From a virus, in IMG/VR virus record IMGVR_UViG_3300046466_000354, positions 1-45,476 of that record: DNA of 45,476 nt; one strand, written 5' to 3'. Positions 1-45,476 of the stretch are shown here, piece after piece. The first letter of the stretch is position 1. Every line of letters begins with the position of its first letter. Under the pieces are notes generated by a model. That model made no database searches, was not told where the DNA came from, and saw only the letters and a list, made by a program, of their open reading frames with translations. The position numbers and the translations under genes were made by a program.

Positions 1-504
1 TTCTTCTGGAGGAAACCAATGATTCATATACTCATCTTTTGTTTTAGTAGCTGTATATACCTGAAATAACTCAGCACCCATACGACCATCAATAAACAAC
101 TCACGTTCATCACCAAGCGATAACCATTTTTCATAGGCTAACTTGCGAACATTCATGTTATCAACGGCGCATAATGTATAAGCATACGCTGCAGAATCTT
201 CAGTATATTCTTCTTCAATACCAGTCATAATAAAGGGACCAAGCATATCAGATATAATTTTCTGAAGTGCTATAGCTTTATTTTCACCGATATCTTTGAT
301 TTTACATAATTGACCGCCAATATTATTAGCGTCATATCTATCCATATCGTAAACAATAGGAACAGCACCGGCCCTGGCTAGGAAATGTCCTAACCATGAG
401 CCAATGCCGCCTGCCCCAATCACAAGAGGATTTAATGATTGTAATGGTTCAAACCATTCAGCTTTACTGAATCTAGCTCTACCCATTTTACCTTCTAGTT
501 TCAT
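1..504 (-). CDS. ThiF/E1-like adenylating enzyme, left allele, 3' end cut by the contig start
   Basis: This is the second allele of the gene at 44773-45432. It begins with ATG at 504 and runs off the window at base 1, so the last 52 residues are missing, including the LPC segment with the candidate catalytic cysteine. The nucleotide-binding Gly-rich loop and the DxD region are present. It differs from the full copy by Ile for Val at residue 78 and Asn for Asp at residue 116. Both alleles descend from one gene position in the circular genome, so this is not a paralogue. It lies 1 base downstream of the JAMM gene. Confidence 0.85.
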   Translation of the reverse strand, partial: MKLEGKMGRARFSKAEWFEPLQSLNPLVIGAGGIGSWLGHFLARAGAVPIVYDMDRYDANNIGGQLCKIKDIGENKAIALQKIISDMLGPFIMTGIEEEYTEDSAAYAYTLCAVDNMNVRKLAYEKWLSLGDERELFIDGRMGAELFQVYTATKTKDEYMNHWFPPEE

Positions 505-548
505 ATTAATAAAATTGTGTATAGTATTGCATTGGCATTTCTAAGCTT
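1..548. repeat. Left copy of a 548-bp imperfect end repeat (contig overlap)
   Basis: This segment aligns without gaps to 44929-45476 (offset 44928). I count about 30 substitutions, all before position 422; bases 422-548 are identical. Of the 30, 28 fall at third codon positions of the ThiF-like gene. Two change the protein: residue 78 (Val in the right copy, Ile here) and residue 116 (Asp right, Asn here). This pattern is real allelic variation under purifying selection, not sequencing error. The simplest reading is a circular or circularly permuted genome whose assembly walked into a second strain variant. Confidence 0.9.
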
Positions 549-1831
549 TGAGCTTTTAGATATGGTAACCAAAACGAGTACTGATCTATGACTGCGTCAT
601 CAAATAATACTGGTCTAGTTATATCTTGTAACATATCCACTTGTGTAGCTTTATAATGTTTACTACGAGTAGATATGTGTGCAAAAACAGAGCAATAAAG
701 AATATCTATCATATTTATGATATTATAATTACCAGGCTGCTCATATATAAGCAATAGCGTGTTGCATGCTTCTTTAAATGCATAAAACGCTACCATAGGC
801 GTGTAATCATCATACACATTAGATAGTTCTATTGTCCATTCTATTTCTTCATAAATACTACGTATTTGTTTAAACTTATTGCTTGAAAACATACGTTTAT
901 AGTATTCAAAGAAATCATCTCTTTCTGTTTCCTTATGATTATTTATCATTCCATGTGCTGCAAAAACTTTATTTAATAAATTATGCGCACATTCTATTTT
1001 AGCTATTATTTGTTTTTCGTTTAATTTATCTTTTATAGTTATTCCATAAGCATCTTCTACAAGTCTAGATAATTCATCTATGTCAAACTTTGTAGAATCT
1101 AATAAGGTTTTACTATATAAAGTTAATAGCTCTTCGTTAATAAATTCAGAAGGCTCAATGTTAAACATGTTGTAAGAATCATAATTCAAAAAACCTGCTT
1201 GATTTGTTTCTTTATCTAAAGTAAAATAATTGTATTTACTTGTTGTATATGTTCCTACTGTTCTGTTTTTATCTATTTCTTTTATACGATTATGTAAGAA
1301 TTCATCAATGTTGTCAGTTCCTAGGTTTACATCGCAATCAAAGTAACCTACTTCTGCATCATTAATAATTTTATATCCATTTTTACCTATTACTGTTTCG
1401 CTACTAACCACATTAAAGCTAATTCTAGCTATGTATTCTTGGTCAGAGTTAGTAATAACAGATAAAAAGTAATCGTATATATTAGCTCCGTCTATTAACT
1501 GAGCTTGATCTGTACCAGAAAAGAATGTATCCATACCATGATGTGAATGTATAAAACCTTGTTTCATCTCTTCTAGTTCTGGTTTATGCTTTATAGCTTC
1601 TACAACTTCTTCATAACTATCAATACTTGTAGAAGAACCAGTACCTACATCCATGGGATATAAATACTTTACATCTATAGTAAAGTTATTAGGATCGTTT
1701 ATAGAGCCTTTTTCTTCGTAAAATAATATACCACACCATTCGGTGTTAGGATATTTAGCACAAAGAAACCTGTCAATGGCTACTACTGTAGGACTCAAGG
1801 AAATTGTAGGCATCCCTTGCAATGGCTTCAT
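506..1831 (-). CDS. JAMM/MPN-domain metalloprotease (deubiquitinase-like), two-part protein
   Basis: The N-terminal third is a JAB1/MPN (JAMM) domain with every zinc-site residue. Numbered from Met at 1831, these are Glu31 in the EWCGILF strand and the HSH-x7-S-x2-D signature: His95, His97, Ser105, Asp108. In the family these residues bind zinc and hydrolyse isopeptide or peptide bonds after a ubiquitin-like C-terminus. The remaining roughly 300 residues are helical and unrecognised. The frame stays open to an ATG at 1930, but that start would overlap the upstream E2-like gene by 158 bp. Met at 1831 or 1813 keeps the whole domain with a short overlap. Its neighbours are an E2-like protein upstream and E1 downstream, so removing or maturing a ubiquitin-like tag is the likely role. 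An NlpC/tail-associated JAB role is less likely because this is the early operon. Confidence 0.85.
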   Translation of the reverse strand: MKPLQGMPTISLSPTVVAIDRFLCAKYPNTEWCGILFYEEKGSINDPNNFTIDVKYLYPMDVGTGSSTSIDSYEEVVEAIKHKPELEEMKQGFIHSHHGMDTFFSGTDQAQLIDGANIYDYFLSVITNSDQEYIARISFNVVSSETVIGKNGYKIINDAEVGYFDCDVNLGTDNIDEFLHNRIKEIDKNRTVGTYTTSKYNYFTLDKETNQAGFLNYDSYNMFNIEPSEFINEELLTLYSKTLLDSTKFDIDELSRLVEDAYGITIKDKLNEKQIIAKIECAHNLLNKVFAAHGMINNHKETERDDFFEYYKRMFSSNKFKQIRSIYEEIEWTIELSNVYDDYTPMVAFYAFKEACNTLLLIYEQPGNYNIINMIDILYCSVFAHISTRSKHYKATQVDMLQDITRPVLFDDAVIDQYSFWLPYLKAQSLEMPMQYYTQFY

Positions 1832-3143
1832 TTCTGTTTTGTTTTTGTTTAACAACATCTTGGATGATGAGGGCCATATGTCCATAGTTTTCGATTGCCC
1901 ATGTTTTTGTTGTGTGTTCATGTAATTCAAAGTTTGTTTGTTGTAATTTTGACAAGTCTGGACACTTGCCTATGTACAGTTTGTTTTTAATAAAAAATGA
2001 AAGATTATCAACTGAATATTCTATATCAGAGTATTTATTAGAGTTGCTAGTAGCATAATCTCCTACTATGTCTAATAAAGACTCACTGAATATATCGTCG
2101 CTGTATTCTTCATTTGATGAGTTCCATAATCTGTAAAAAGGAACTTTTATATTTTCAACGCAAAAGTTAAAATAATTTTCTTCTGCATCTAATAACTTAC
2201 CGTATTGCTCTATGCAATCTAATAAAGTTATGTCTTCGTTAGATTCAAATTTTTCTATGTAATAATGTTTAAATACGCAGTAAAACTGCTTATAAACTTC
2301 TAACATATTATTATAATTTAAATCATATTCATCGTGTATTCTAGTAGCGTAAAAATGCATTTTGTTATTAACAAATCTTTTTTCGCTAGTAAATTTATTA
2401 CACAATTCATCTAATCTTTCTATGCCTTTCTTGAAATCTGGATTTAATAATTCTAAATCATCAGTATTATTGTATAAATTAATAGTATCTGATAATTCTT
2501 TTGTTATTTGATTTACAACTTCTTGGCTCCATTGGAATGATATTGTTTCTGCATCATTATTAGATGTGCCTTGATCGTTTATGAAATCATTTATTGAATC
2601 TTCATCAAGTTCAGCATTATTATCATCTGCAACATCTTCATTATTTACAGTTGATATATAAGCATAAGGACCTCCGTCTAAGTTTTCATAATGAGCAAGG
2701 CTGTTTAAACAAAAGAAAAATGTGTATACATCCTCTTCTTCTAAATGCCGTCTATTGTTTCTCATTTTATTAAACATTTCACGAAGTATGTTACCATCAC
2801 CATCACCAATGCAAACAACTGAAGATGTTAAACCAGACACATGTGAGTGTGCATAGTTTGCTCTAGCCATGTCATAGCTTGGTAATAAATTATAACCTCT
2901 TATGCCTGTAAGACCATTAAGAAATATTTCTTTAGTATCTTTGTCACACCCTACTGTAAACGTTGATATAAAAAGAAAATTATTTAGCTCTAATGATTCA
3001 TCATGATCGTTATTTATTACGATAGATGGGTATAGGGTATAAACTAAATATTCTCTATTATCAAAGTTTAAATGGGTATCTATTACAGCACCAGTATCTT
3101 CATAGATGCTTTTTAACATTAATGGAACGTCTAATATATTCAT
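1773..3143 (-). CDS. Putative E2-like (UBC-fold) protein with helical C-terminal extension
   Basis: This 456-aa protein has an N-terminal domain of about 160 residues with a strand-rich start and a YAHSHVSG segment (His99, His101), followed ten residues later by Cys111 in VVCIGDGD. Classical E2 enzymes place a catalytic cysteine shortly after an HPN motif. Prokaryotic E2-like proteins often have HxH variants followed by CLG or CIG, as here. Residues 160-456 are mainly acidic and helical, with no family I recognise; the JAMM neighbour has a similarly sized helical tail. The gene sits between a small beta-grasp candidate and the JAMM/E1 genes. The E2 call rests on motif spacing and context, and a structure prediction could overturn it. 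Confidence 0.55.
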   Translation of the reverse strand: MNILDVPLMLKSIYEDTGAVIDTHLNFDNREYLVYTLYPSIVINNDHDESLELNNFLFISTFTVGCDKDTKEIFLNGLTGIRGYNLLPSYDMARANYAHSHVSGLTSSVVCIGDGDGNILREMFNKMRNNRRHLEEEDVYTFFFCLNSLAHYENLDGGPYAYISTVNNEDVADDNNAELDEDSINDFINDQGTSNNDAETISFQWSQEVVNQITKELSDTINLYNNTDDLELLNPDFKKGIERLDELCNKFTSEKRFVNNKMHFYATRIHDEYDLNYNNMLEVYKQFYCVFKHYYIEKFESNEDITLLDCIEQYGKLLDAEENYFNFCVENIKVPFYRLWNSSNEEYSDDIFSESLLDIVGDYATSNSNKYSDIEYSVDNLSFFIKNKLYIGKCPDLSKLQQTNFELHEHTTKTWAIENYGHMALIIQDVVKQKQNRNEAIARDAYNFLESYSSSH

Positions 3144-29326: not shown

Positions 29327-32300
29327 ATGACAGAAGAAGAATACGGCAAAAGATATACGGATCTTGTAAGGCTGTATCGTTCTAGTCCTGCCTCTTTTAG
29401 CTCTGATGATGTTGATCAAATAGAATATATAGCAAAAACATTAGGCAGAAGATTTTCTAGAGACCCTCAAGCAGCTGAAGAAACTTTAGGTAAACAGGTA
29501 GGTGACGTTATAGGTCAGTTTACTAGTGGTCTTGTTAGTGGCTTTACTACTATACCTATAGGAGATGACCCCGAAGATATACCTGAAGCAATAGCGAGGA
29601 GCATAGGACAGTTAAGTGGTTTTCTTGGATATGTACCTGGTTTAGGTATGGCTACAAAAGCAGGAGCTATGGCATCTGCTAGAGTATTAACTAAAACTGC
29701 AGGGCTTACTGCAAAAACCTCTCCTAAGGCTTTTAAAGCTGCTATGCAGGGTAGAAGAGCAGTTAAACAATTTGACACCGCTATAAGGCAGCCAGGCGCT
29801 TTAGCTGGCAAGTCTATTCCAATGATGGTTGGTAAAAAAGCTACCGAGTATGCTAAAAAGTATGTATTGCCTCCTGTAAATAATCAAGCAAGAAAATATT
29901 TTAGTAAAGGTGTAGCTGAAGGGTTAGAAGATTCTTTTGAAACTGCTGTACAATTAGGTGCTGCGAGCGCCATATCTAGTTGGACTGGTGGTGTAGATCA
30001 AATAATTAGAGGTGGTTTGTTTGGCGCAATAGAAGGTGGTGTATTTAGAGGCATTACTAATGCTACCCAGTTAGGCAAAATGATAGCTAAGGGAGGCAAG
30101 GAAGCTAAACAAGCTAATCTTGCAATACGTACTATATCATCAAGTATATATGGTGGTATGCAAAGTAAAACATTTGGTGATCCTATAGAGTTACAAGTAT
30201 ATCATTATTTGCTTGGTGCATTTTTTGGTATAACAGATGTTCCTTTTTCACAAAGAAAAGCTATAGAGTTTGTTAATAAATCTACAGGGTTAAGTAGGGA
30301 AGAAGCCCAAGCAGGGCTTACAGAAAGAATGTTAAATCCTGAGTTAAATCCTGGCTTTAAAGATTTAAGTAAAGAAGTACAAGAAGAAGTAGTAGATCAA
30401 TTAGATCAAATGTTTGGCAAGCCTGGAGATGCTAGAGCAATATTTGGAGAGTCATTAAGACGAACATTGTCAGAAGAATCTAAAGAAAATATTGTACATG
30501 AGTTTGCTAGAAAGAAATTTGAAGAGTTTGCTGATTCAGATGAAAACTTAACGTTTGAAGAAGCTAAACAAAAAACATATGATTTTATAAAAGACAAAGA
30601 TTTTAGCAGGCTAATAAGTAGTCCAGAGTTTTATTTAACAATGAATGATGGTGTAAAGGCTGAGTATGACCCTCAAAAAGGAGTAAACCTTTCTAATAAA
30701 GCTATTGTAGAATTATCATTTTTTGACCATGAAATACCCACAGTATTACAAGACCCATTGTTAAGGTGGGCTGAAAACTCTATACCAGACCAACCAGAAT
30801 TAGTAAATAGTTTAACTCTTGATTCTGGTAAGATTATAAATACAAGTATTAAAGAAGGAAGAAGTTTTGAGGAAGCAATCAAAGGTGTTAAAAATAATTG
30901 GTTTGCTAAAACAGGAAGTCTTTTGCCAGAATCTACAGAGTCTATAAATTTATTAAAAAAGTCTTTTAAAAAATTATCACATCAAAAAAGACAAAAGATA
31001 TTAATATATGATGCTAATAAGACTGATGATACTAAACCATTCTTTACAGAAAGTGATGGTAATTTATCTGACTTTAGGTCTATTAATGAATTTAAAGCAG
31101 ACAGTGCTGTAGCAAAGGCTGTTAAACGTTTAATACCACACACTAAAAATAATATATTTTTATCAAAGTATACTGATACTGGTAAAATAGTAAGCACACT
31201 ATCTAAAAACTTCTTTAAGATTACTCCAGATGCTGGTTATGATCTTGACATAAATGAAGTTAATAATTATGTAATTAGGGCAGGGCTAGAAGGTAAACCC
31301 GTAATTGCAGGTATTAAAGATTCAGGAAAAATAGTACATGCAAATGACTGGAATTTTGATGATAGCAATAGCGCTTGGCTTGTTGATTTTACTACTAAGG
31401 TAGAGAATATAAATAGAATTGATGATAGTCTTGGTATTAGAGTAAGTATGACCGAGATAAACCCTGCGACAGACGGAATTAATAATCCTGAATTAGTAGA
31501 AATTAAAATGGTTCAGGATAAATATACCTATAACAATATTAGATTATTAGAAGAATTAAATGGTTTATCTATAGAAGATATTGTTAGGTATAACAAAGAA
31601 GACAGAGATGCAGGTAGAAAAGAGAGGTTTATAACAAAACCAGAAGATATAAATAAAAGGATGCAACCCTTATCTGATGGTAATCCTCCTTTAAGTAAAG
31701 AAATAGGCAATATAAAAGCCGCTATTGTTAAGAGCGATGATGCTCAGCATTATTTAAAAATGTTAGATTTAGACGAAACAAATAATGATGGTATTATTTT
31801 AGTGTCATCTAATATGTTTAAAAAAATAGCTAACGATATAGGTGCTGATGAAAATAAAGATGGGTTTTTAAAGTTTACTATTGCTGGTCAACAGGGTGAT
31901 GGTAAGGGCATGATTATTGGTAAACTCGGCGCTTTTAAAGCAAGCAAAAAAACTGATCCGTTTTTAAAGAAAAATAAAATAGATTTTTTAATGTTTGATA
32001 CCGCTGTAAAGCAAGCAGGATTAAGAGATATAAGTACATTAAAATTTACTAAAGAAGGAATAAGTATTGCAGAAGAAGGTGGATTACAGTCATTTAATAT
32101 AGATCCAGAAACGGTTAGAATAAACTTAAATGTTTATGAAAAAATGCCAGAAGACACAAGGCTTGTAAAGCAGTTTGTTTCTTTAATGGATACACCTGAG
32201 TCTATTGAAAGGCTTACTAAAAATATTATTAGAATATCTTTAGATGGAAATGCAGAGACAAATAAATTAATACAGTCTCAAGATTTTAAAAATACTTTTG

Positions 32301-35300
32301 TAACAGATATAAATGTTGATGACATTAGCATAGAGAATATTATTAATATATTGTTTCAACCAAAAAATTCAAGAGCGGTTGCTACACCATTATACAATAA
32401 AGTTTGGTCTCATATTTTTAATCAAAAGTCAGCAATAGACTTTGAAGACCCAGCTGATTTAAAAGGAGAAACTGGTGACATTGATCATGTAGTCAATGAA
32501 ATATTAGTTGATAGATTTAATGGCGGGCAAGATAGGCTTATAAAAGTTGCTATGGCTAAAGGGGAGTTAAGTCCTGCTATTATGAATAGACCAGAAGTTG
32601 CTAATTATGCTAATGAGGCTTTAAAAAGATATATATACAATAGAGCCATTAGGCCAAAAGTAAAAAACTCTGGATCTGTTTTTATATATGGTAACGATTA
32701 TGTACTGCAAAATGAAATAGGAAGGCCTGTAGCAAAAAATACTTATATGCTTGCTGAAAGCATGAAAGATTTTAAAGTAAAATGGATAGATGGTACCCAA
32801 ATGAAAATGGGTAAGGCTTGGGAAATTTTTCAAAAAGAAACAGATGCTACCAAGAAAAAACAAATGGAAAACGCTCTTGAGTTTATAGTAGTGCGTGTTC
32901 CTCAAGATTCACCATCAGGTGCAAGAGTTTTAAAGTTTGCAGGATTTACCCCTAGGTCTGGATATGGTATGCATTTAAATGCTTATGATATGAAGTATTT
33001 AGGGGGAGCTGATAATGACGGAGATAAAGTACATTTTTATCAGGATTTAGATGGCGACCTTGTCGGGTCGCCTATAAAAGATGCAGTAAGAAAATTTGCT
33101 AAAGAGTACGACACCCCAGACGGGGGTGTAAAAGACCCCACAGAAGGTGATTTAACAGTAGTAAAGCCAAAATATAATTTAAGGAATGGACTAGATCCTG
33201 TTAGTCTTCTTGCTACTCATATGTATACTACTGATGCAAGTGGGCTAGTAGGTCCTATAGCTAACGCTGGTGCTACATCATTAGGTATAAAAGGTTTAAT
33301 AGAAAGCGGTTTTAATATCCAAGAATTTGTTAATCAAGATGGAATTGTTAATGCTGTAAATGTAGGTAAAGGATTACCACCTGCAACTGGTTTACGAATA
33401 ACTAAAATAGACGGAACATTAAAAGAATATAATGCAGCTAGAAGGCAACTTCAGAATTTAGCAATAGACGCTATTGATAAAATAGATATAAATGTTGTTA
33501 ATCAATCTCAATATTTAAGTCAAAAATATGTCAAAGATTTTGAACTTGTTGACGCAAATGATAGAGCAATACCAGTTAGTCCAGCCGTAAAAGAAAAGTT
33601 TAGGTCTAGGATAAACATAAACAAAATAAAAGGAGCGGATCAATTAGTTCGCATTAATGAAGTTATAAATGGTAGGAGATTTAACAGGGAAACAAATCAA
33701 TCAGAAATAATAAAGTTTGATACTGGTATAAATTCTATAATAGAATTTGGAAGAAAATATAAAAATGTAGATTTAAAAAGTGGATACTACAGAGCTATAA
33801 AAGAACTTTCTAAATCAGTTCAAAATTATAAACCTGTAAACAAAGTTACATCTCAAAAAACAATTGATGGCACAATGTTAAGAACATATAGTTCTGATTT
33901 TTCTAGAGCTATACGTTTTGATTTAAATAATATTTTTGACATTGTAAATGCTTATTTAAAAGATGGTAAAGATAGCCAGTATGGCAATGTTTTGCTTGGA
34001 AGCGCAATGCGACAGTTTAGCATATTAGATGGTAGTTTAAGTAGGGATAGAAAGTTTTCTACTATTAAAAGTGTTTATAGGTCAATAGATAATTTAGCTT
34101 CAATATCTCTTAATAGACAAGCTTTTCTTGCGGCTAAAAAAGCTGGCATATCTGATGAAAAGTTATCTGATATAAGATTACACATTGATAGTGTTAAATA
34201 TACTAGGTCTTTATTTTTTGAAAAAGATATAAGTGAATCAGATGCAATTAGAAAAAGATTAATAAAAGATAAAGAGCTAAAAATAACAGAAATTGAAAAC
34301 GTTGATGATTTAATTAAAGTAACCGAAAAATACCATGCTTCTTTAAAAACAAAAGCAGAAAAAGATTACTACGATATGTATATGATAGGGTCTGTTTCTG
34401 AGCAAAGATTTGATATTGATGATGTAGCAAGAGCGGTTTACATTACTAAAAAAAATAACGTAACATTTAATACTGCATTAAATCTAATGCAAGATTCTAG
34501 ATATGATAAATACACTTATGAGTATCTGTCTAGTGATGAATATAAATCTACTGAAAAAAACCTTCCTTTAAAAAATATAGCTAATGAAATAGATAGGGTT
34601 TATCAAAATAAATCAGGAGATCAAAATTTTGGTTTTAGTTTAGATCATGTAAATAATAACAATGTATCAAGATATGTTTCATTATTTAATGAAATAGCAC
34701 AAGTAAAAGAGGGTACAGAGAAAATTTATAGTGATGTTATAAATCCAGCAGCTAGTGCAACAGTAGAAAGAATATTACTTAAAAATGTATCTAAAGAAAA
34801 AAGAGAAGAATTAAACGAGATACTTAATGAAGAAATAAAAAGAGAGTATAGATCTCCTATTGAACCTGGAACTATACCATCTGTAAATGCTGCCTTTGAT
34901 ATAAAATTAAATACATCAAGGCCTCCTATAGACGAAAAAGAAGCTAGACGTTCTTCAGTAAGTGATGAAGTTATAACAGAAAAGTTTTCTGAAGATCTTA
35001 TAAATGAAATTGCTAAAGACGATCCTACTAAAACATTTACTGATACAGATCAACAGTTAATAGATCAATTAACAGCTCATTTATCAAAGCTTCCATCTAA
35101 TGTTGTAGAAGACATAAATAGGGTTTATCAAAATAAAATAAGAAAAGATATAGGTGTTTCTACCAAAGAAGATGTAAGGGATTTTGTAAGATATTTAAAC
35201 AGTTTTCATTCAAAAACATTTTTAGAAAAGTTAGTAGGAGCTGATCCAACTCAAGGTATTTCTAAAATATATTGGGCATTCTTTCCAGATAGTATAGCAA

Positions 35301-38152
35301 GAAGATTAACATCTATTGATACTAATTTATCTGAAGATCAAATAGTCCAGGTTCTTACTACAGAAGGTTATAAAAATAAAAAAGTAAAAGATGTTATGTC
35401 TCATTATGAAATGATGAGGCTATCATTAAATACTGTAGAAGAAGCTAGAAGTGCATTAGTAAACAGAATAACTGGCGCAATAAACAATGAGTTAAATTAT
35501 TTAAATGATGAGTCAGTTATAAATGACAGAGAAAATTTAATAGAAACCTCTATTGCTATAAAAGAGATGGGCAATATTGGTAGGCTTAGAAGATTAGAAA
35601 GATTGGGTACATCAGATTTAGAAAGAGAAAATGCTACATGGTCTATATTAAAGTATGAAGAGATGTTTGAATCTAAAAAAGATGTATACAACAGATTAAA
35701 AGATAAAAAGTATATAATATATGTTGATAATGTAAAATCTGAAGTAACTGGTCGTGATTTAATGGGTGAATGGGATGGCGAAAAAGTAACCCAAGGAAGA
35801 ATATCTAACTCTTTTACTGATTTAAATGAGTTCTTTTTTAACACATTTATAGATCCGCAATCAGGAAGAGATTTTGTAGTAAGAGATGATGATGGTTTTT
35901 TATTACCAGATGAAACCATGGCTAGATTAATAGAACAATTTCAAGGAACTAAATCTGATTCTGAAAGAATAGCAAATATTGGTTTATCTCAACTTTATGA
36001 GCTAGCTAAAGAACTTCAGTATAGAAATAATACTAGAGTAAAAGTAAACGGTATAAAAACATTAGTAAAAAACATTGCAGATCCTGAAGTAAAAAAACAA
36101 AAACTATTTGAAATAAGAATGAATGATAGGGGCATTAAAGATGGTGACGGCCCTTATGGTCCTGTATATAGAAGAAATCCTAATGGCACTTATAAATTAG
36201 CGCCAATGATAGGAAAACTTAGAGCATCAGAATATTTTCCTCATAAAAATCATTCTGAAGAAGCTATTCAAACTTATATAAACACGCATTACAAACCTAA
36301 AACTATTGAAGGCACAGATATAGCTATAGGATTATCTAATTCAGAACTTAATAATTTTAAAAGATGGTCTGCTCAAGGTAAAATAAAAGAAGATGGTGGT
36401 TTAGCAAAAGAATACATAGAGGATTCTTTTTCTATAAAAGATCATTTAGATAACACTAGAGAAAGTAATGGTACACAACAAAGTAATTTTAGACTATTTG
36501 GCAATTTAGGAGGAAGATCAGATAGGATTATTGGAGGATGGGATATTAGTGCTAAATCATATAATGAATACGCTCAATCATTAAGTTCATCTTATCATAA
36601 ATTATTTGGAACTTTACTTGCTCAAAAATTTAATAGAGATTTTAGAGAATCTAATGTAATGGGAGACATTACTGAGTCATGGGCTAAATTTGGCGATATA
36701 TATATACAAGACTTTGTTGGAAAACCATCTAGTTTTAGTTCAGAATACTTTAATGATCCTTATTTAAACTTTGCTAAGTCTCCTTATTATGCTTTAAGCG
36801 ATGATATGGCTTATAAGTATTATGACAAAGTAGCTAAGTATTTTAATTTTAGAAGATTTAAAGATCCAGAAGTAGACAGGTTAGAGTTTCAAGCTAAAAT
36901 GAAATCTTTTACCAGGCTAGAGGGCAAGACTCAGTTAATGACACTGCTTACTAATACTACATCTATGCTTAATAACTATGTAGGTGGTACAGCTCAGACG
37001 GCTATTAGTAGTGGGTTTAGAAACTGGAGATTAGCTAGTAGTGTAGAATATTTAAGAGACAATATAGATAAGTCATTAAATAGTAAAGAAGCTATTAGAG
37101 AATTTGCTATTAAGTCAGGCGCTACTGAATCATATATTAGTAGTGAAATTGGGCCGACAGCCCAAATAAGGGCATCTGGAAGAAAGTTTAAAGAAGAATT
37201 AGCCGCTTTATATAAAGAAAATGAAAACTTTACTGCTAAACAGGTTATAGATTTAGCTAAAAAAAATAATGTATCTGATGTATTATCTGGTCCTGGAGCT
37301 TGGATGATGAGTTCAGTAGAAACAAGATTACGTACTAGAGCTTTTTGGGCTCATTATCTTAAAGCCAGAGAAGTAATGATGGCAGAAAGTGGCTCTTATA
37401 AATGGGATGATCCAGTATTAATACAAACAGCATTAAAAGGTGTGTGGGGTTCTCAGTTTTTATATAACGCACCTAACAGACCCGCTATTGCAAGGACTAA
37501 TTTAGGTCGTATATTTTCTAGATTTCAATTATGGAGTTGGAATTCTATAAGATTTAGAAGAGATATTATAAAAATGGCTAGAGAAAATGGATTTAGAGAA
37601 GGAAGTCAAGAGTATCAACGTTTTGTAAGAATGATACAAGCAGATACATTTATGTTTGCTATGGCTACGCTAATGCCTATGAGCATGTTTGAATCTATAC
37701 TACCAGCTCCTTGGAATTATTTACAAGATTTTAGTGATTACTTTTTTGGTGATGAAAAAGAAAGAGATAAAGCTTTCTTTGGACAAATACCTTACCCATT
37801 TAATCCTTTACAAATAGCCTTGCCTCCATCTGCTCGTTATATTACAACTGGTGTTAGCGTTCCTATTGAAGCAGCAATAGCGATGCTTAGTGATGGTGAC
37901 CTGTCTGATGCATTAGATTACAGAACAGTTAGCCTTTTACCTTATGGTATGCTTGCTCGTAATGTAATAAGATCGTTAGACACACCTGCTATGGCTCCTC
38001 AGTATCTTACAGGTATACACTTTCATAATTTAACACGTATAATGAACAAGCTAGAAGATAGTGCTACTTATAAAGCAAACGGATTGTATGAAGCTAAAAG
38101 TCGATTTGTTGATGAAGAAATAGAAAAAATACTTGAAGCCATAAAAGAATAA
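29327..38152 (+). CDS. Giant virion protein with two-barrel RNA polymerase motifs (2941 aa)
   Basis: The central part has the key element of two-barrel RNA polymerases: GGADNDGDK with Asp1229, Asp1231 and Asp1233 (DxDGD, the Mg-binding loop). It is preceded by Arg1190-x-Pro1192, FTP at 1207-1209, and a Leu-rich stretch, in the order of the beta-prime R.P....G..F.P....L....ADFDGD region. About 340 residues earlier, IDFLMFDTAVKQAG (885-898; Lys895) resembles a lysine-bearing first-barrel motif that I recall from crAss-like phage polymerases. Residues 61-120 are Gly-rich and hydrophobic as in ejection proteins; the last ~600 residues are a helical domain. It belongs to the internal protein block of the late operon, so it is probably packaged and injected to transcribe early genes. 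The N4 virion polymerase is a different (T7-like) fold. Confidence 0.7.
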   Translation: MTEEEYGKRYTDLVRLYRSSPASFSSDDVDQIEYIAKTLGRRFSRDPQAAEETLGKQVGDVIGQFTSGLVSGFTTIPIGDDPEDIPEAIARSIGQLSGFLGYVPGLGMATKAGAMASARVLTKTAGLTAKTSPKAFKAAMQGRRAVKQFDTAIRQPGALAGKSIPMMVGKKATEYAKKYVLPPVNNQARKYFSKGVAEGLEDSFETAVQLGAASAISSWTGGVDQIIRGGLFGAIEGGVFRGITNATQLGKMIAKGGKEAKQANLAIRTISSSIYGGMQSKTFGDPIELQVYHYLLGAFFGITDVPFSQRKAIEFVNKSTGLSREEAQAGLTERMLNPELNPGFKDLSKEVQEEVVDQLDQMFGKPGDARAIFGESLRRTLSEESKENIVHEFARKKFEEFADSDENLTFEEAKQKTYDFIKDKDFSRLISSPEFYLTMNDGVKAEYDPQKGVNLSNKAIVELSFFDHEIPTVLQDPLLRWAENSIPDQPELVNSLTLDSGKIINTSIKEGRSFEEAIKGVKNNWFAKTGSLLPESTESINLLKKSFKKLSHQKRQKILIYDANKTDDTKPFFTESDGNLSDFRSINEFKADSAVAKAVKRLIPHTKNNIFLSKYTDTGKIVSTLSKNFFKITPDAGYDLDINEVNNYVIRAGLEGKPVIAGIKDSGKIVHANDWNFDDSNSAWLVDFTTKVENINRIDDSLGIRVSMTEINPATDGINNPELVEIKMVQDKYTYNNIRLLEELNGLSIEDIVRYNKEDRDAGRKERFITKPEDINKRMQPLSDGNPPLSKEIGNIKAAIVKSDDAQHYLKMLDLDETNNDGIILVSSNMFKKIANDIGADENKDGFLKFTIAGQQGDGKGMIIGKLGAFKASKKTDPFLKKNKIDFLMFDTAVKQAGLRDISTLKFTKEGISIAEEGGLQSFNIDPETVRINLNVYEKMPEDTRLVKQFVSLMDTPESIERLTKNIIRISLDGNAETNKLIQSQDFKNTFVTDINVDDISIENIINILFQPKNSRAVATPLYNKVWSHIFNQKSAIDFEDPADLKGETGDIDHVVNEILVDRFNGGQDRLIKVAMAKGELSPAIMNRPEVANYANEALKRYIYNRAIRPKVKNSGSVFIYGNDYVLQNEIGRPVAKNTYMLAESMKDFKVKWIDGTQMKMGKAWEIFQKETDATKKKQMENALEFIVVRVPQDSPSGARVLKFAGFTPRSGYGMHLNAYDMKYLGGADNDGDKVHFYQDLDGDLVGSPIKDAVRKFAKEYDTPDGGVKDPTEGDLTVVKPKYNLRNGLDPVSLLATHMYTTDASGLVGPIANAGATSLGIKGLIESGFNIQEFVNQDGIVNAVNVGKGLPPATGLRITKIDGTLKEYNAARRQLQNLAIDAIDKIDINVVNQSQYLSQKYVKDFELVDANDRAIPVSPAVKEKFRSRININKIKGADQLVRINEVINGRRFNRETNQSEIIKFDTGINSIIEFGRKYKNVDLKSGYYRAIKELSKSVQNYKPVNKVTSQKTIDGTMLRTYSSDFSRAIRFDLNNIFDIVNAYLKDGKDSQYGNVLLGSAMRQFSILDGSLSRDRKFSTIKSVYRSIDNLASISLNRQAFLAAKKAGISDEKLSDIRLHIDSVKYTRSLFFEKDISESDAIRKRLIKDKELKITEIENVDDLIKVTEKYHASLKTKAEKDYYDMYMIGSVSEQRFDIDDVARAVYITKKNNVTFNTALNLMQDSRYDKYTYEYLSSDEYKSTEKNLPLKNIANEIDRVYQNKSGDQNFGFSLDHVNNNNVSRYVSLFNEIAQVKEGTEKIYSDVINPAASATVERILLKNVSKEKREELNEILNEEIKREYRSPIEPGTIPSVNAAFDIKLNTSRPPIDEKEARRSSVSDEVITEKFSEDLINEIAKDDPTKTFTDTDQQLIDQLTAHLSKLPSNVVEDINRVYQNKIRKDIGVSTKEDVRDFVRYLNSFHSKTFLEKLVGADPTQGISKIYWAFFPDSIARRLTSIDTNLSEDQIVQVLTTEGYKNKKVKDVMSHYEMMRLSLNTVEEARSALVNRITGAINNELNYLNDESVINDRENLIETSIAIKEMGNIGRLRRLERLGTSDLERENATWSILKYEEMFESKKDVYNRLKDKKYIIYVDNVKSEVTGRDLMGEWDGEKVTQGRISNSFTDLNEFFFNTFIDPQSGRDFVVRDDDGFLLPDETMARLIEQFQGTKSDSERIANIGLSQLYELAKELQYRNNTRVKVNGIKTLVKNIADPEVKKQKLFEIRMNDRGIKDGDGPYGPVYRRNPNGTYKLAPMIGKLRASEYFPHKNHSEEAIQTYINTHYKPKTIEGTDIAIGLSNSELNNFKRWSAQGKIKEDGGLAKEYIEDSFSIKDHLDNTRESNGTQQSNFRLFGNLGGRSDRIIGGWDISAKSYNEYAQSLSSSYHKLFGTLLAQKFNRDFRESNVMGDITESWAKFGDIYIQDFVGKPSSFSSEYFNDPYLNFAKSPYYALSDDMAYKYYDKVAKYFNFRRFKDPEVDRLEFQAKMKSFTRLEGKTQLMTLLTNTTSMLNNYVGGTAQTAISSGFRNWRLASSVEYLRDNIDKSLNSKEAIREFAIKSGATESYISSEIGPTAQIRASGRKFKEELAALYKENENFTAKQVIDLAKKNNVSDVLSGPGAWMMSSVETRLRTRAFWAHYLKAREVMMAESGSYKWDDPVLIQTALKGVWGSQFLYNAPNRPAIARTNLGRIFSRFQLWSWNSIRFRRDIIKMARENGFREGSQEYQRFVRMIQADTFMFAMATLMPMSMFESILPAPWNYLQDFSDYFFGDEKERDKAFFGQIPYPFNPLQIALPPSARYITTGVSVPIEAAIAMLSDGDLSDALDYRTVSLLPYGMLARNVIRSLDTPAMAPQYLTGIHFHNLTRIMNKLEDSATYKANGLYEAKSRFVDEEIEKILEAIKE
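33053..33129 (+). other. Two adjacent perfect GC-rich hairpins inside the giant gene
   Basis: GGCGACC/GGTCGCC (33053-33072, loop TTGTCG) and ACACCCC/GGGGTGT (33111-33129, loop AGACG) lie just downstream of the catalytic-loop codons. They are seven base pairs each with no T-run. They could slow ribosomes or affect mRNA stability; no function is shown. Confidence 0.5.
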
Positions 38153-39779: not shown

Positions 39780-40193
39780 CTAAAGAAGGACTTCTTGTAT
39801 GGTAATAGTTGTAAGCGGTAATATACTATACCTTTTTATTACTTGCAAATCAACTATTTGAGAATCATCATTGTAAGCAATTCCGTTTAAAGAATCTAAA
39901 TAAAATTTAGCTATATTATCTACATCAGGTTTTTTAGGCCTATGTTGACCATCAACTACTGCTGCTTTTTTCTTTGAAAAAGATTTAGGTATAGAAAAAT
40001 CAGCTTGTATGATTACTTCTACCATGCCCTGCATTTTTTCAAAAGAATAGCTTTCTTTTACAAAATCTATAAACTTTTGTTTGTCTTTAGATTTTGGATC
40101 ATAAGTACGCACAAACCCACCCCTAGAGGTGTGTCTGTGTCGTGTTTGTGAGTGAGGTTCTCCTGGGTATACTATATGGATAAACTCAATCAT
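39780..40193 (-). CDS. rusA: RusA-family Holliday junction resolvase
   Basis: The 137-aa product has the RusA signature KKPDVDNIAKFYLDSLNG (residues 87-104; Asp90, Asp92, Asp100) and YNDDSQI (Asp109, Asp110), which hold the metal-binding acidic residues. It also starts with the typical YPGEPHSQTRHR strand. The enzyme is a homodimer that cuts four-way junctions symmetrically. Here it may resolve recombination intermediates or debranch DNA before packaging. Its ATG overlaps the upstream stop as ATGA. Confidence 0.95.
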   Translation of the reverse strand: MIEFIHIVYPGEPHSQTRHRHTSRGGFVRTYDPKSKDKQKFIDFVKESYSFEKMQGMVEVIIQADFSIPKSFSKKKAAVVDGQHRPKKPDVDNIAKFYLDSLNGIAYNDDSQIVDLQVIKRYSILPLTTITIQEVLL

Positions 40194-40696
40194 TTTCTTA
40201 TGCTAAGAGATGTAACTTTATTTGCTTCATAGTCGGGGGGCACTTCGCCCCCGTTCTTTATGTATTCTTTTATAAGCCTTTTATTAGGACTTACTTTTAC
40301 ATTAAGGTCTATAGCATACTGTTTAGAGTATTCTATTAGCACATCATCTTCAGGAAATGTTTCTTTGGTTCTTGTGGTAAAATAAACTGTACCTGCTTGT
40401 GTAGGTATCTTATCTATTTTAGAAGTATTCATAAATATTTCTACTTTTACCTTTAACATTTCTATTGTTTTTTCTGTACGTTCTATTCTATCAGAATAAA
40501 ATTGTACAGATTGTTGCTTTAACTTCTTTAGATTGTCTATAGTGTTATTCATTTTGTTTATAGCAAACAAATAACCTTCTACTTGACCTGGTGATGAAAT
40601 GTCGGAGTTTTCCTCCATAAACATTACATCAATATCATCAAGAGTTAATTCTTCATGCGTCAACGTGTTGTTGTCTTGGTTCAAATCTGAATACAT
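40190..40696 (-). CDS. Gp157-like phage protein (coiled coil plus strand domain)
   Basis: The 168-aa product has an N-terminal acidic helix, a long coiled coil (residues ~45-90, NTIDNLKKLKQQSVQFY and on), then a strand region ending in TSLSIRK. That plan matches the Gp157 family, found in many phages near recombination genes and of unclear biochemistry. It overlaps the primase-helicase gene by 44 bp; Met25 or Met27 are possible later starts. Copy B of the tagged hairpin lies inside at 40236-40262. Confidence 0.75.
   Translation of the reverse strand: MYSDLNQDNNTLTHEELTLDDIDVMFMEENSDISSPGQVEGYLFAINKMNNTIDNLKKLKQQSVQFYSDRIERTEKTIEMLKVKVEIFMNTSKIDKIPTQAGTVYFTTRTKETFPEDDVLIEYSKQYAIDLNVKVSPNKRLIKEYIKNGGEVPPDYEANKVTSLSIRK
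40236..40262 (-). promoter_or_regulatory. Tagged GC-rich hairpin element, copy B
   Basis: On the minus strand CATAAAGAA (40262-40254) is followed after one base by GGGGGC, loop GAAGT, and GCCCCC (40252-40236). Compared with copy A, the tag, the spacer and the loop are the same but the stem bases differ on both sides so that pairing is kept. This looks like covariation, so the structure and not only the encoded peptide may be selected. Confidence 0.5.
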
Positions 40697-42452
40697 TGTA
40701 ATTAAATTTTAATTGTATGTTTAATTTTCCTTGATCTCTATTCTTAAGGGACCTAAGTGTTTTATATTCTTCTGTCCCTTCAAGTGCAAATACATGATCC
40801 ATTTTAGTTACATTAGCACGATTACCAGATAAATCATTAAGTTGTATTAATGCCCTAGGGTCTTCCCTTTTCTTTAGGTGGTGTATTAATATTACTTGTA
40901 TATCTTTGTTTTGTGCTAATTCTCTAAATGTTTCAACTATCATTCCTAATTTCACAAATTCATTATTACCAGCTTTGTCTGCTTGTATACCGTCTGAGGT
41001 ATCTACAACAACGTACTTGTAATCTTTTTGTGATATTATTCTTGACATACTTGTTATTTCAGGTGATATAGAAAGCATATCAATAAAATCTAAATCATTA
41101 TTAAATAGCTGACCATTACGCACCATGTTTATTATTTCATCTTTTGTTTTATTGTGAATGTTTTGTAAGAACCTTCTGTACACTAAAGATTCATGCATTT
41201 CTAAATTTAAATACAAAGTTTTTTGTTTAATTTTGCATAATAAATCTTGTACAAAGGCGCTTTTACCAGCGCCAGTGTCTCCTGTTACTACCATAATTTC
41301 ACCTGGTACAAACTTATAGTCACCTTCGTGTCCATATATTTGTGTTAGGTTTATACCAGAGTAATCTACCTTTTGTATATAGTCTGCAAGATTTTTAGTC
41401 ATATTAGCAGCGTTGTTTACTTCTAATACAAAATCTTTATTTTTATAAAATATACAATTAGTATCACAGAATTCAGTCATTACTTCGTCTTTACAGCCGT
41501 AACTATACTCTCCTTTGTATACGTTTTCGACTATACGAGTAAACTCTTGAGCTTCTTTAGAATTATCTGGTACATCTAACCATGCTAGTATCATTAATCT
41601 TGACATAGAAGCTATGATTCCATGCCTTCTCCAAGCACTAACTATTCTTAATACATCTTTATGTCGCCTACCAGCGACTGGACCTCTTAAAAATAATTTT
41701 TGCATACAAGTAACAACTGATGATGGATTGTCATAATCATTCATCTGATGCCAATTAGATTTTACTTCTCCTTCTACAACTTCATTAGACAATGTCCCAT
41801 CGTCTATATTGTTCATAGGAATAGTAACTCTTTGCTCCATATAATTTTCACCTGCTATCTCATGCAAGTAGTCTTGTGCACTAGCGCTATTGCTAATGTC
41901 AAAAAGCTGCTTATGTGATATAGGTATTTTATGTAAGCCAGATTTATGAGTGCTATACGGCGCCCTAATTAATCCAGCTGGAGCTAAAGGTGCTGTATCT
42001 ACATATTGATCCCATTTACTAAAAAATGATTTAAATGTAGACACTGTATCAAAACTTAAAGATTCTGAATCTTCAAATGTAAATACGTTAGGCATGTGTA
42101 TATGGTATCCCTTTCCACCAGAAAACCATACTTGTATATTTCTTTCTTCTATTTCATGATAGTTAGAAAGGTACTTGACTATATCTATAGTAACTTCAGT
42201 TATTGTTTGTAAGTCTGCTGATTCTCCATCTATATCTAATATTGTTTTATGATGGTATCTATTACTCCTATACCCAGATAAACTATTCATAGATTTAACA
42301 TAATCTAAAACAGATTTGTCGTATGCATAGTATGACGTATACATTAACTTACCTAGATTAGCTGTTACATATCCGTGAAGTCTTTCTACAGGTATAAAAT
42401 TACCTCTATTAAATAAAGAGTCTACAACAAACTCTAAGTATTTTTGACTCAC
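40653..42452 (-). CDS. Primase-helicase fusion (AEP-type primase plus RecA-like helicase)
   Basis: The 599-aa protein starts with an archaeo-eukaryotic-type primase domain: LDIDGES (Asp73, Asp75) and FSGGKGYHIHM (residues 110-120; His117), the metal and nucleotide motifs of PriS/LigD-type polymerases. Residues 320-333 hold three cysteines (Cys320, Cys329, Cys333) in a zinc or iron-sulfur-like arrangement. From ~380 a RecA/DnaB-like ATPase domain follows, with Walker A GDTGAGKS (391-398), Walker B VVVDTSD (Asp484), LIHHLKK (524-525) and a RSLKNRDQG end. It would prime and unwind DNA at the fork. No DNA polymerase is visible nearby, so a host polymerase is probably recruited. The gene begins after a hairpin terminator behind ssb. 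Confidence 0.88.
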   Translation of the reverse strand: MSQKYLEFVVDSLFNRGNFIPVERLHGYVTANLGKLMYTSYYAYDKSVLDYVKSMNSLSGYRSNRYHHKTILDIDGESADLQTITEVTIDIVKYLSNYHEIEERNIQVWFSGGKGYHIHMPNVFTFEDSESLSFDTVSTFKSFFSKWDQYVDTAPLAPAGLIRAPYSTHKSGLHKIPISHKQLFDISNSASAQDYLHEIAGENYMEQRVTIPMNNIDDGTLSNEVVEGEVKSNWHQMNDYDNPSSVVTCMQKLFLRGPVAGRRHKDVLRIVSAWRRHGIIASMSRLMILAWLDVPDNSKEAQEFTRIVENVYKGEYSYGCKDEVMTEFCDTNCIFYKNKDFVLEVNNAANMTKNLADYIQKVDYSGINLTQIYGHEGDYKFVPGEIMVVTGDTGAGKSAFVQDLLCKIKQKTLYLNLEMHESLVYRRFLQNIHNKTKDEIINMVRNGQLFNNDLDFIDMLSISPEITSMSRIISQKDYKYVVVDTSDGIQADKAGNNEFVKLGMIVETFRELAQNKDIQVILIHHLKKREDPRALIQLNDLSGNRANVTKMDHVFALEGTEEYKTLRSLKNRDQGKLNIQLKFNYNVFRFEPRQQHVDA

Positions 42453-43216: not shown

Positions 43217-44011
43217 TTATTCTTGGTTTATTATTTGTGTATTGTTATTTATTGTTTGCAATGACCATGATTTGCCATTACCTGTGTCACCTAATATTAA
43301 TATTTTTGGATTACTAACTCCATTTTTCTTATAACAATTTATGATATAAGAGATATCTTGCGGTATTACAGATGGTAAATAATCACCTCTGTTTTTTGCA
43401 AAAATATATCTAGAGTCAGCTGATACAATCCAGCTATATGTTTTAGTTTTATTTTTAGCATCTTTTGATACTTTAGAATACGCTATAACGTCAAAGTATC
43501 TACCACATGCTGTTTCTATACTACCTTTTAAATCAGGTACTTCTATAGGTCTACCATATTCATCTTCTTTACGCTTAACATGACCTGTAACAATTACAGG
43601 AAAGTTACATTTAGAAAAAAGATTAAATAGTTTTTCCATAGTATCACCATATAAGCCCCATGTACGCATTTCCATGGATTCTAGCTTTTGTTCTTTAACA
43701 AGGTGAGCACGTTCTTGTACACCTAACATAGTTACGGTGTCTAAGATCATCATATTAACTCCGTGTTCACGGAGCTTTTCATTAAATGTAATAATAACTT
43801 CGCTACCTACATCACCCATAATAGGATGTATTTCAGGAACTCTAGTTATTTGTATTACATTTTGCATTAGTTTATCTCTTAGCATTTTAGCAGACCCTGA
43901 CCAAGGAACGGCAGGCAAACCAAATACTTTAGTTTGTTTATCCTTACCGCCTATGGTCGAAAGTGAATGGTCTACATCAAATACAAGAGCCTTATAGACT
44001 TCTTCTTGCAT
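43217..44011 (-). CDS. Sak4-like recombination ATPase with circularly permuted motif order
   Basis: The 264-aa product belongs to the RecA/AAA_24-type P-loop group used by Sak4 recombinases, but its order is inverted. It starts with the beta-2-like strand KALVFDVDHS (residues 7-16), has Walker B MMILDT (Asp91), then VIVTGHVKRK (His144), VPDLKGS (158-164) and FDVIAY. Only after what is normally the C-terminus (SYIINCYKKNG) does it carry KILILGDTGNGKSWSL with Walker A GDTGNGKS at 241-248, 16 residues before the end. An in-frame stop lies just upstream of ATG 44011, so no N-terminal Walker A is missed. It is followed by ssb. It presumably anneals or pairs DNA strands during recombination-dependent replication. 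Confidence 0.75.
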   Translation of the reverse strand: MQEEVYKALVFDVDHSLSTIGGKDKQTKVFGLPAVPWSGSAKMLRDKLMQNVIQITRVPEIHPIMGDVGSEVIITFNEKLREHGVNMMILDTVTMLGVQERAHLVKEQKLESMEMRTWGLYGDTMEKLFNLFSKCNFPVIVTGHVKRKEDEYGRPIEVPDLKGSIETACGRYFDVIAYSKVSKDAKNKTKTYSWIVSADSRYIFAKNRGDYLPSVIPQDISYIINCYKKNGVSNPKILILGDTGNGKSWSLQTINNNTQIINQE

Positions 44012-44772: not shown

Positions 44773-45432
44773 TTATTGTATTTCCATTTCTAATAGTTGA
44801 CCTAAATAAGATACTTTAGATGGCACCACGCTATTGCCAAGGTAATTAGTTAGTATATTAACCATTACGCTAGCTGTCATACTACCAATATGAGATGTAG
44901 CTTTATATGCGCATGGTAATCCTATAGCCTCTTCTGGAGGAAACCAATGACTCATATACTCATCTCTTGTTTTAGTAGCCGTATATACTTGAAATAATTC
45001 AGCGCCCATACGACCATCAATAAACAATTCACGTTCCTCACCAAGTGATAACCATTTTTCATAGGCTAACTTGCGAACATTCATGTCATCGACGGCACAT
45101 AATGTATAAGCATACGCTGCAGAATCTTCAGTATATTCTTCTTCAATACCAGTTATAATAAAAGGACCAAGCATATCAGATATAATTTTCTGAAGTGCTA
45201 CAGCTTTATTTTCACCGATATCTTTGATTTTACATAATTGACCACCAATATTATTGGCGTCATATCTATCCATATCGTAAACAATAGGCACGGCGCCAGC
45301 TCTGGCTAGGAAATGACCTAACCATGAGCCGATACCACCAGCACCAATTACAAGAGGATTTAATGATTGTAATGGTTCAAACCATTCAGCTTTACTGAAT
45401 CTAGCTCTACCCATTTTACCTTCTAGTTTCAT
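44773..45432 (-). CDS. ThiF/E1-like adenylating enzyme, complete allele
   Basis: The 219-aa product has the E1 fold core: a Gly-rich loop VIGAGGIGSW (residues 28-37), the acidic YDMDRYD (52-58) and a DIGENKA helix (71-77), then LFIDGRMG (137-143), and a late GLPCAYKATSHIG segment with Cys174 as candidate thiol. E1 enzymes adenylate the C-terminus of ubiquitin-like or sulfur-carrier proteins. Two points are unusual: the usual NxxRQ reads NIGGQ, so the conserved Arg is Gly64, and there are no CxxC zinc pairs. It directly follows the JAMM gene across the circle junction. Activation of the 81-aa candidate is possible but not shown. Confidence 0.85.
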   Translation of the reverse strand: MKLEGKMGRARFSKAEWFEPLQSLNPLVIGAGGIGSWLGHFLARAGAVPIVYDMDRYDANNIGGQLCKIKDIGENKAVALQKIISDMLGPFIITGIEEEYTEDSAAYAYTLCAVDDMNVRKLAYEKWLSLGEERELFIDGRMGAELFQVYTATKTRDEYMSHWFPPEEAIGLPCAYKATSHIGSMTASVMVNILTNYLGNSVVPSKVSYLGQLLEMEIQ

Positions 45433-45476
45433 ATTAATAAAATTGTGTATAGTATTGCATTGGCATTTCTAAGCTT
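44929..45476. repeat. Right copy of the 548-bp imperfect end repeat
   Basis: This copy matches 1-548 without gaps. The final 127 bases (45350-45476) are identical to 422-548. An exact match of 127 bases is a k-mer length used by common short-read assemblers, which suggests the contig stopped where two strain variants rejoin. I do not read it as a physical terminal repeat, because the two copies diverge by about 5 percent. Confidence 0.9.
45434..45476 (-). CDS. JAMM metalloprotease gene, last 14 codons (5' part cut by contig end)
   Basis: These bases equal 506-548 exactly and encode the C-terminal end of the JAMM protein on the minus strand. The rest of the gene is at 549-1831. It is a product of the circular overlap and not a second gene. 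Confidence 0.9.
   Translation of the reverse strand, partial: SLEMPMQYYTQFY

What the first reader, a model, noticed from the sequence alone, without database searches (positions are those of the whole stretch)
43217..44011. Sak4-like ATPase with Walker A at the C-terminus: a circular permutation
Seen directly: Walker B-type strand (Asp91), the His144 sensor-like motif and the PDLKG region all come before the P-loop GDTGNGKS at residues 241-248, which lies 16 residues from the stop. The N-terminus begins at the strand that normally follows Walker A. An in-frame stop upstream of the ATG excludes a missed N-terminal P-loop. Known: Sak4 and other AAA_24/RecA-type ATPases have Walker A first. Circular permutation is well documented in the GTPases of the YlqF/YawG group, but I know of no permuted Sak4. 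Placement next to an SSB supports the family call.
Basis: partly seen in the sequence, partly recalled or inferred. Interest (0 to 1): 0.88.

Follow-up and report, generated by a model that had tools for sequence, protein, structure and literature searches.

The report
Sak4 recombination ATPase, circularly permuted
A family of uncultured phages carries a DNA-annealing (Sak4-type, RecA-like) ATPase whose ATP-binding loop has moved from the front of the protein to its very end with the rest kept in order, which makes it a natural circular permutation in a recombinase family where none had been reported in the literature I could search.

Summary
ORF 43217-44011(-), 264 aa, matches Sak4/AAA_24 from the strand after Walker A onward, and its only P-loop (GDTGNGKS, 241-248) lies 16 residues from the stop. 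It is not an assembly artefact. Nine further IMG/VR contigs encode the same order, at 98% down to about 24% identity, under purifying selection, with the P-loop among the most conserved blocks. Moving the C-terminal piece to the front restores one continuous match to Sak4 profiles. The C-terminal P-loop carries the Sak4-type GK[ST]xSL signature: in a scan for ILIxGxxGxGK[ST]xSL, 61 of 62 viral hits were Sak4s, 52 with the motif near the N-end and 9 near the C-end. AlphaFold2 on 10 permuted sequences gives pLDDT 89.6 and pTM 0.88. The nearest PDB structure, by fold and by sequence, is a canonical Sak4 (8rc5). Permuted proteins form one group, in phages sharing a terminase family and the order Sak4, SSB-like gene, primase-helicase. 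It most likely works as a Sak4: ATP-dependent ssDNA annealing with its SSB-like neighbour. This is a new variant of a known kind. Function and domain swapping are untested. The SSB call rests on position and C-terminal tail only.

The parts
43217..44011 (-). circularly permuted Sak4-like RecA-type ATPase gene, 264 aa
   Evidence: PF13479 AAA_24 E=1.3e-10 on residues 5-208 = profile 22-194/195; phrog_124 Sak4 8.7e-22
43268..43291 (-). Walker A / P-loop GDTGNGKS, residues 241-248, at the C-terminus
   Evidence: its G241, G244, G246, K247 and the following S250, L251 are invariant in 10 permuted proteins
43289..43306 (-). beta-strand before the P-loop (canonical beta1), residues 236-241
   Evidence: AlphaFold2 model, pLDDT about 89-95 in this region
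43307..43354 (-). old C-terminal helix (220-229) and new linker (230-235) joining the ancestral C-end to the ancestral N-end
   Evidence: hhalign places residues up to about 228 on the canonical Sak4 C-terminus; helix 220-229 in the model
43970..43972 (-). Asp14, acidic residue at the end of the first strand; candidate catalytic carboxylate (aligned with the Glu of 'CEGG'/'TEAG' in canonical Sak4)
   Evidence: alignments; the catalytic role is inferred
43739..43753 (-). Walker B strand ending in Asp91
   Evidence: Asp91 invariant in 10 permuted proteins; strand 87-91 in model
43580..43582 (-). His144, sensor-like, within strand 139-149
   Evidence: invariant in 10 permuted proteins
43388..43396 (-). 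Lys206/Arg208 (AKxR), aligned with the conserved Arg of the C-terminal part of canonical Sak4 (candidate arginine finger)
   Evidence: role inferred from PMC8093625
42538..43215 (-). SSB-like partner gene, 225 aa, C-tail DDELMF
   Evidence: position directly downstream in all permuted loci examined; C-tail; no Pfam/PHROG hit
40653..42452 (-). primase/DnaB-type helicase (its own P-loop GDTGAGKS is in canonical position)
40190..40696 (-). Gp157/Mu Gam-like end-protection protein
   Evidence: PF05565 2.9e-7, phrog_253 2.6e-9
39780..40193 (-). RusA-like Holliday junction resolvase
   Evidence: PF05866 4.3e-26

Best explanation
The gene encodes a Sak4-family (RecA/Rad51-like, AAA_24) single-strand annealing ATPase that underwent one ancestral circular permutation. 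The old C-terminal helix was joined by a linker of about 6 residues to the strand that precedes the P-loop. New termini opened between the P-loop helix and the next strand. The chain therefore starts at the strand carrying the candidate catalytic acid (Asp14), runs through Walker B (Asp91), His144 and the Lys/Arg finger (206/208), and ends with strand, P-loop and helix. It folds into the same ATPase core, binds ATP between neighbouring protomers, assembles on ssDNA as canonical Sak4 does, and anneals complementary strands coated by the SSB-like product of the next gene. This serves recombination-dependent replication or genome-end joining together with the Gam-like, RusA-like and primase-helicase products. 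Shown here: element order, homology, conservation, purifying selection, synteny and predicted fold. Inferred: ATPase activity, annealing, filament formation and SSB partnership.
For: AAA_24 and phrog_124 match from just after the P-loop positions, with the P-loop matched separately at the C-end. Rotated protein: phrog_124 84.1 bits as one continuous match (profile 39-247), against 65.6 with a foreign N-end and 79 for the native two-part match. Rotation scan with a canonical Sak4 HMM: best with the cut anywhere from about residue 190 to 231, 28.8 to 44.6 bits (window), 33.6 to 46.8 (L022), 36.2 to 49.7 (L024); segment shuffles reach at most 29.4 and the phage's own helicase P-loop 35.5. hhalign to canonical Sak4: rotated E=1.8e-18 over 169 columns, native 3.8e-12 over 135. 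GK[ST]xSL is shared with all 10 Schitoviridae Sak4s, and ILIxGxxGxGK[ST]xSL is almost Sak4-specific in viral DNA. Native profile hits solved Sak4 8rc5 in swapped order, C-end to residues 17-66 and core to 111-241. AlphaFold2 pLDDT 89.6 and pTM 0.88; top PDB fold is 8rc5, prob 0.99. One group, 100/100 in the tree without long-branch rows. Canonical Sak4 is an ATP-dependent annealase stimulated by a neighbouring SSB through its C-tail (PMC5928155).
Against: No activity is shown. L043 gained nothing on rotation (29.3 to 29.4 bits). Rotation did not raise the total score against 8rc5 (24.7 rotated, 31.0 native), though it restores the order. Support for one group falls to 58/63 or 70/78 when divergent canonical rows are included. 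Foldseek aligns in chain order, so TM-scores to canonical folds are modest (0.41/0.48). SSB homology is undetected.
Confidence: 0.85

Rival explanations
1. Truncation plus acquisition: the ancestor lost its N-terminal P-loop module and the C-terminal P-loop came from another ATPase (for example the neighbouring helicase with GDTGAGKS), so this is a chimera rather than a circular permutation.
For: The neighbouring helicase has a nearly identical Walker A octamer. Generic P-loop families such as AAA_10 and DUF87 match the C-terminal 37 aa about as well as Sak4 profiles do.
Against: The motif after the lysine is Sak4-like (GKSWSL, GKTYSL), not helicase-like (GKSAFV). The helicase P-loop placed in front scores 35.5 against 44.6 for the protein's own. 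The C-terminal segment alone hits only Sak4 PHROGs. The old C-terminal helix lies directly before it, as permutation predicts.
Confidence: 0.06
2. The P-loop strand and helix are exchanged between neighbouring protomers, so the active site is completed in trans in the filament and the monomer is not a closed canonical fold.
For: The P-loop unit is terminal on a short linker. RecA-family ATP sites already lie between protomers, and canonical Sak4 forms filaments (PMC11846896).
Against: The single-chain AlphaFold2 model is confident (pTM 0.88), which a closed monomer explains without swapping.
Confidence: 0.1
3. Sequencing, assembly or frameshift artefact that joined two genes.
For: None found. 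The window's ends overlap imperfectly (547 bp, 94.7%), but that junction is in the ThiF gene, not here.
Against: Ten sequences from several metagenomes with the same order, synonymous differences inside the P-loop codons and low dN/dS.
Confidence: 0.01

Closest known systems
Sak4 / AAA_24 single-strand annealing proteins (HK620 Sak4, phage 52A Sak4 = PDB 8rc5, N4 gp44)
   Same: Same profile families, same core motifs, GK[ST]xSL in the N4-like branch, same neighbour type (SSB-like gene directly downstream)
   Different: All canonical members checked have the P-loop near the N-end; here it is in the last 21-42 residues, and the chain begins at the following strand
Circularly permuted GTPases (YlqF/YawG, YqeH, RsgA)
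   Same: Natural circular permutation of a P-loop NTPase
   Different: Different NTPase class (TRAFAC GTPases against RecA/ASCE ATPase). YqeH has an N-terminal zinc finger and a C-terminal PNR domain flanking the permuted domain (PMC2848588); here only a short tail follows the P-loop and no added domain is present
UniProt A0A516LUR7 (unnamed viral protein in BFVD)
   Same: Foldseek E=4.8e-17, TM 0.65/0.69 over nearly its whole 248 aa, 28% identity, as expected for another permuted member
   Different: Sequence order not read here; no annotation available

Membership tests
Sak4 / AAA_24 (PF13479, phrog_124) | Significant match to the family profile above the curated cut-off | tested here: met
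   PF13479 41.8 bits against cut-off 27; phrog_124 E=8.7e-22; L085, L112, L100, L024, L022 50.7-67.9 bits
Sak4 / AAA_24 (PF13479, phrog_124) | Intact Walker A with Lys and Ser/Thr | tested here: met
   GDTGNGKS, GNSGTGKT, GKAGTGKT and so on in all permuted members
Sak4 / AAA_24 (PF13479, phrog_124) | Walker A at the N-terminus, before Walker B | tested here: not met
   residues 241-248 of 264; C-terminal in all 10; this is the permutation, so the protein is filed as a permuted variant and not as an ordinary member
Sak4 / AAA_24 (PF13479, phrog_124) | Walker B aspartate and conserved downstream residues | tested here: met
   D91, H144, K206, R208 invariant
Sak4 / AAA_24 (PF13479, phrog_124) | RecA-like fold close to solved Sak4 | tested here: met
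   predicted model only: 8rc5 is the top PDB fold, prob 0.99, E=3e-3, TM 0.41/0.48, aligned in chain order
Sak4 / AAA_24 (PF13479, phrog_124) | Neighbouring SSB gene with C-tail (frequent companion) | tested here: inconclusive
   SSB-like ORF directly downstream; tails DDELMF, SDDLLF, SAPPF; no sequence homology to known SSBs detected
Sak4 / AAA_24 (PF13479, phrog_124) | ATP-dependent ssDNA binding and annealing | not testable with these tools
   needs purified protein
Circularly permuted GTPases (YlqF/YqeH) | GTPase domain with NKxD specificity motif, order G4-G5-G1-G2-G3 | tested here: not met
   profile matches are to AAA_24/Sak4, not to GTPase families; no NKxD in the sequence

The most novel reading that the evidence does not exclude
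The permutation changed the mechanism: with strand, P-loop and helix as a terminal arm, protomers exchange this arm along the filament, so ATP binding and filament assembly are obligatorily coupled in trans, unlike canonical Sak4, RecA or Rad51.
Probability: 0.1. Interest if true: 0.88.

Novelty: new variant of a known kind. Interest (0 to 1): 0.74.

Why it matters
Natural circular permutation among P-loop NTPases is best known from one group of GTPases. A permuted RecA/Rad51-type recombinase would show that this ATPase core tolerates new ends inside the P-loop unit. It offers a natural template for placing tags or split sites in RecA-like proteins and annealases used in recombineering, and it marks a phage lineage. 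It also means that annotation which expects Walker A first, or flags C-terminal P-loops as fragments, can miss such proteins. Whether ATP-dependent filament assembly survives the change can be tested with one purified protein.

Tried and rejected
Artefact: rejected by nine homologous contigs. Missed N-terminal P-loop: rejected by the in-frame stop and the overlapping upstream gene. Chimera with the helicase P-loop: disfavoured. tblastn in the 50,697-record phage collection with P0001, its rotated form, L024, L112 and L100 found no permuted relative. The two genome-contig scans found none either, so the variant is so far seen only in uncultured viral contigs. The first AlphaFold2 model from 6 sequences was poor (pLDDT 63) and its PDB matches were meaningless. 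SSB homology by hhalign failed, but N4-type and HD01-type SSBs also failed to match each other, so that test is insensitive. Literature: no paper held both Sak4 and 'circular permutation', and none of the 7 with 'permuted' has it in title or displayed abstract start; I searched the text of one of these and the passages shown did not bear on it.

Full report
What was checked. The ORF at 43217-44011 on the minus strand is real and reads 264 codons from ATG. Ten codons upstream there is an in-frame stop, and the intervening residues hold no P-loop. The gene's first 20 bases overlap the preceding gene. The single GxxxxGK[ST] is at residues 241-248, 16 residues before the stop. Pfam AAA_24 covers residues 5-208 as profile positions 22-194 of 195, so only the P-loop positions are missing at the front. 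phrog_124 (Sak4-like) shows the same pattern with a second stretch, and phrog_2872 (Sak4-like) matches residues 236-261 to its own positions 4-29.

Is it a permutation? Placing the last 37 residues in front gives one continuous phrog_124 match (profile 39-247, 84.1 bits), compared with 65.6 bits when a foreign segment is placed there. A profile built from 14 canonical Sak4s scored every rotation of the protein. Scores plateau at their maximum for cuts between about residue 190 and 231, that is between the end of the matched core and the P-loop strand. This raises the window protein from 28.8 to 44.6 bits, with similar gains for L022 and L024 but none for L043. Shuffled segments reach at most 29.4, the phage's own helicase P-loop 35.5, and a generic AAA P-loop 36.0. 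Profile-profile comparison gives E=1.8e-18 over 169 columns for the rotated alignment and 3.8e-12 over 135 for the native one. The native alignment places the helix just before the P-loop on the canonical Sak4 C-terminus. Against the PDB, the native profile hits the solved Sak4 8rc5 in swapped order: query C-end to chain residues 17-66, query core to 111-241. The rotated profile restores the order, though its total score is lower.

Is the C-terminal P-loop the original one? All ten Schitoviridae Sak4s and all permuted proteins share GK[ST]xSL. A collection-wide scan for DNA encoding ILIxGxxGxGK[ST]xSL found 62 stretches in IMG/VR. On inspection 61 are Sak4 relatives: 52 with the motif near the N-end and 9 with it 21-42 residues from the C-end. 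The motif is thus close to Sak4-specific in viral DNA (in bacterial and archaeal genomes it also occurs in other ATPases), and the position is bimodal.

Distribution. Permuted proteins occur in the window and in IMGVR_UViG_3300048115_000124 (98%), 3300018041_000090 (74%), 3300012920_000133 and 3300030109_005320 (57-58%), 3300044606_000240 (31%), 3300025141_001014, 3300030419_002248, 3300025118_001825 (a 5'-cut fragment) and 3300010293_000006 (24-26%). Five of the six other contigs tested carry a homologous large terminase, 30-86% identical, so they appear to be one phage lineage. Five canonical-Sak4 contigs tested lacked it, though contigs may be incomplete. No permuted relative was found among 50,697 phage records or in the two genome scans. 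In trees of rotated sequences the permuted proteins form one group: 100/100 without the most divergent canonical rows, 58/63 and 70/78 with them. A single origin is therefore likely but not certain. The canonical-order protein that scored best against the permuted profile is in a Nitrosotalea MAG (L139).

Constraint and structure. dN/dS is 0.18 (window/L043), 0.075 (L022/L023) and 0.30 (window/L022). Invariant in all ten are D91, H144, G153, G163, F173, D174, W194, R201, K206, R208, Q218 and the P-loop residues. AlphaFold2 with six sequences was poor. With ten it gave pLDDT 89.6 and pTM 0.88, with strand 236-241 and helix 249-255 formed. The top PDB match is 8rc5, a Sak4 (prob 0.99, TM 0.41/0.48 in chain order). 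I had no coordinates, so sheet adjacency was not measured.

Mechanism. Canonical HK620 Sak4 binds ssDNA and anneals it in an ATP-dependent way, stimulated by the SSB next to it through the SSB's last six residues NDYPPF, and up to 80% of sak4 genes lie next to an ssb gene (PMC5928155). Phage 52A Sak4 forms Rad51-like filaments (PMC11846896). Here every permuted gene whose downstream region was read is followed by a small ORF. Its tail is DDELMF, SDDLMF or SDDLLF in the window group, EEEIW in L024, and SAPPF or EAAPF in L112, L085 and L096; the L100 neighbour lacks such a tail. Next comes a primase-helicase in the window, L002, L043, L112, L085, L096 and L100, and in the window and L112 a tested Gp157/Gam-like gene. 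The simplest account is a Sak4 annealase with rearranged chain ends acting with its SSB. The SSB assignment is an inference: profile comparison to known SSBs found nothing.

Comparison with known permutations. The YqeH group of GTPases is the classic natural case; there the permuted domain is flanked by a zinc finger and a PNR domain (PMC2848588). Here no extra domain follows the P-loop. I know of no permuted RecA-type recombinase (memory), and the library search found none.

Verdict. My estimates are: permutation about 0.93 likely, Sak4-like biochemical function about 0.75; the combined statement, with its mechanism marked as inferred, is scored 0.85. A new variant of a known family.

Noticed in passing
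window 2-548 and 44930-45476: The two ends overlap by 547 bp at 94.7% identity (same ThiF-like gene), so the record is probably a near-complete genome of about 44.9 kb closed across strain variants rather than with an exact terminal repeat.
   Followed up: partly
window 506-1930, 1773-3143, 44773-45432 (minus strand): A ThiF/E1-like gene (PF00899) lies next to a JAB-like protein (PF14464, below cut-off) and a second protein with an HSH motif: a possible phage-encoded E1-JAB module, also seen in L043; the ThiF protein has relatives in crAss-like and Flavobacterium phages.
   Followed up: partly
L107 9133-11073 (also L110, L120, L079): A canonical sak4 gene is split at the Walker B strand by about 1.2 kb that encodes a GIY-YIG/NUMOD1 homing-type endonuclease; intron-like, but no Rfam hit.
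   Followed up: partly
L101 2435-3472 (also L077, L071): Another canonical sak4 is split at a different site (profile position 155) by about 270 bp; possibly a small intron, no Rfam hit.
   Followed up: partly
window 29327-38152: A 2941-codon ORF with no Pfam match, possibly a virion-injected protein.
   Followed up: no
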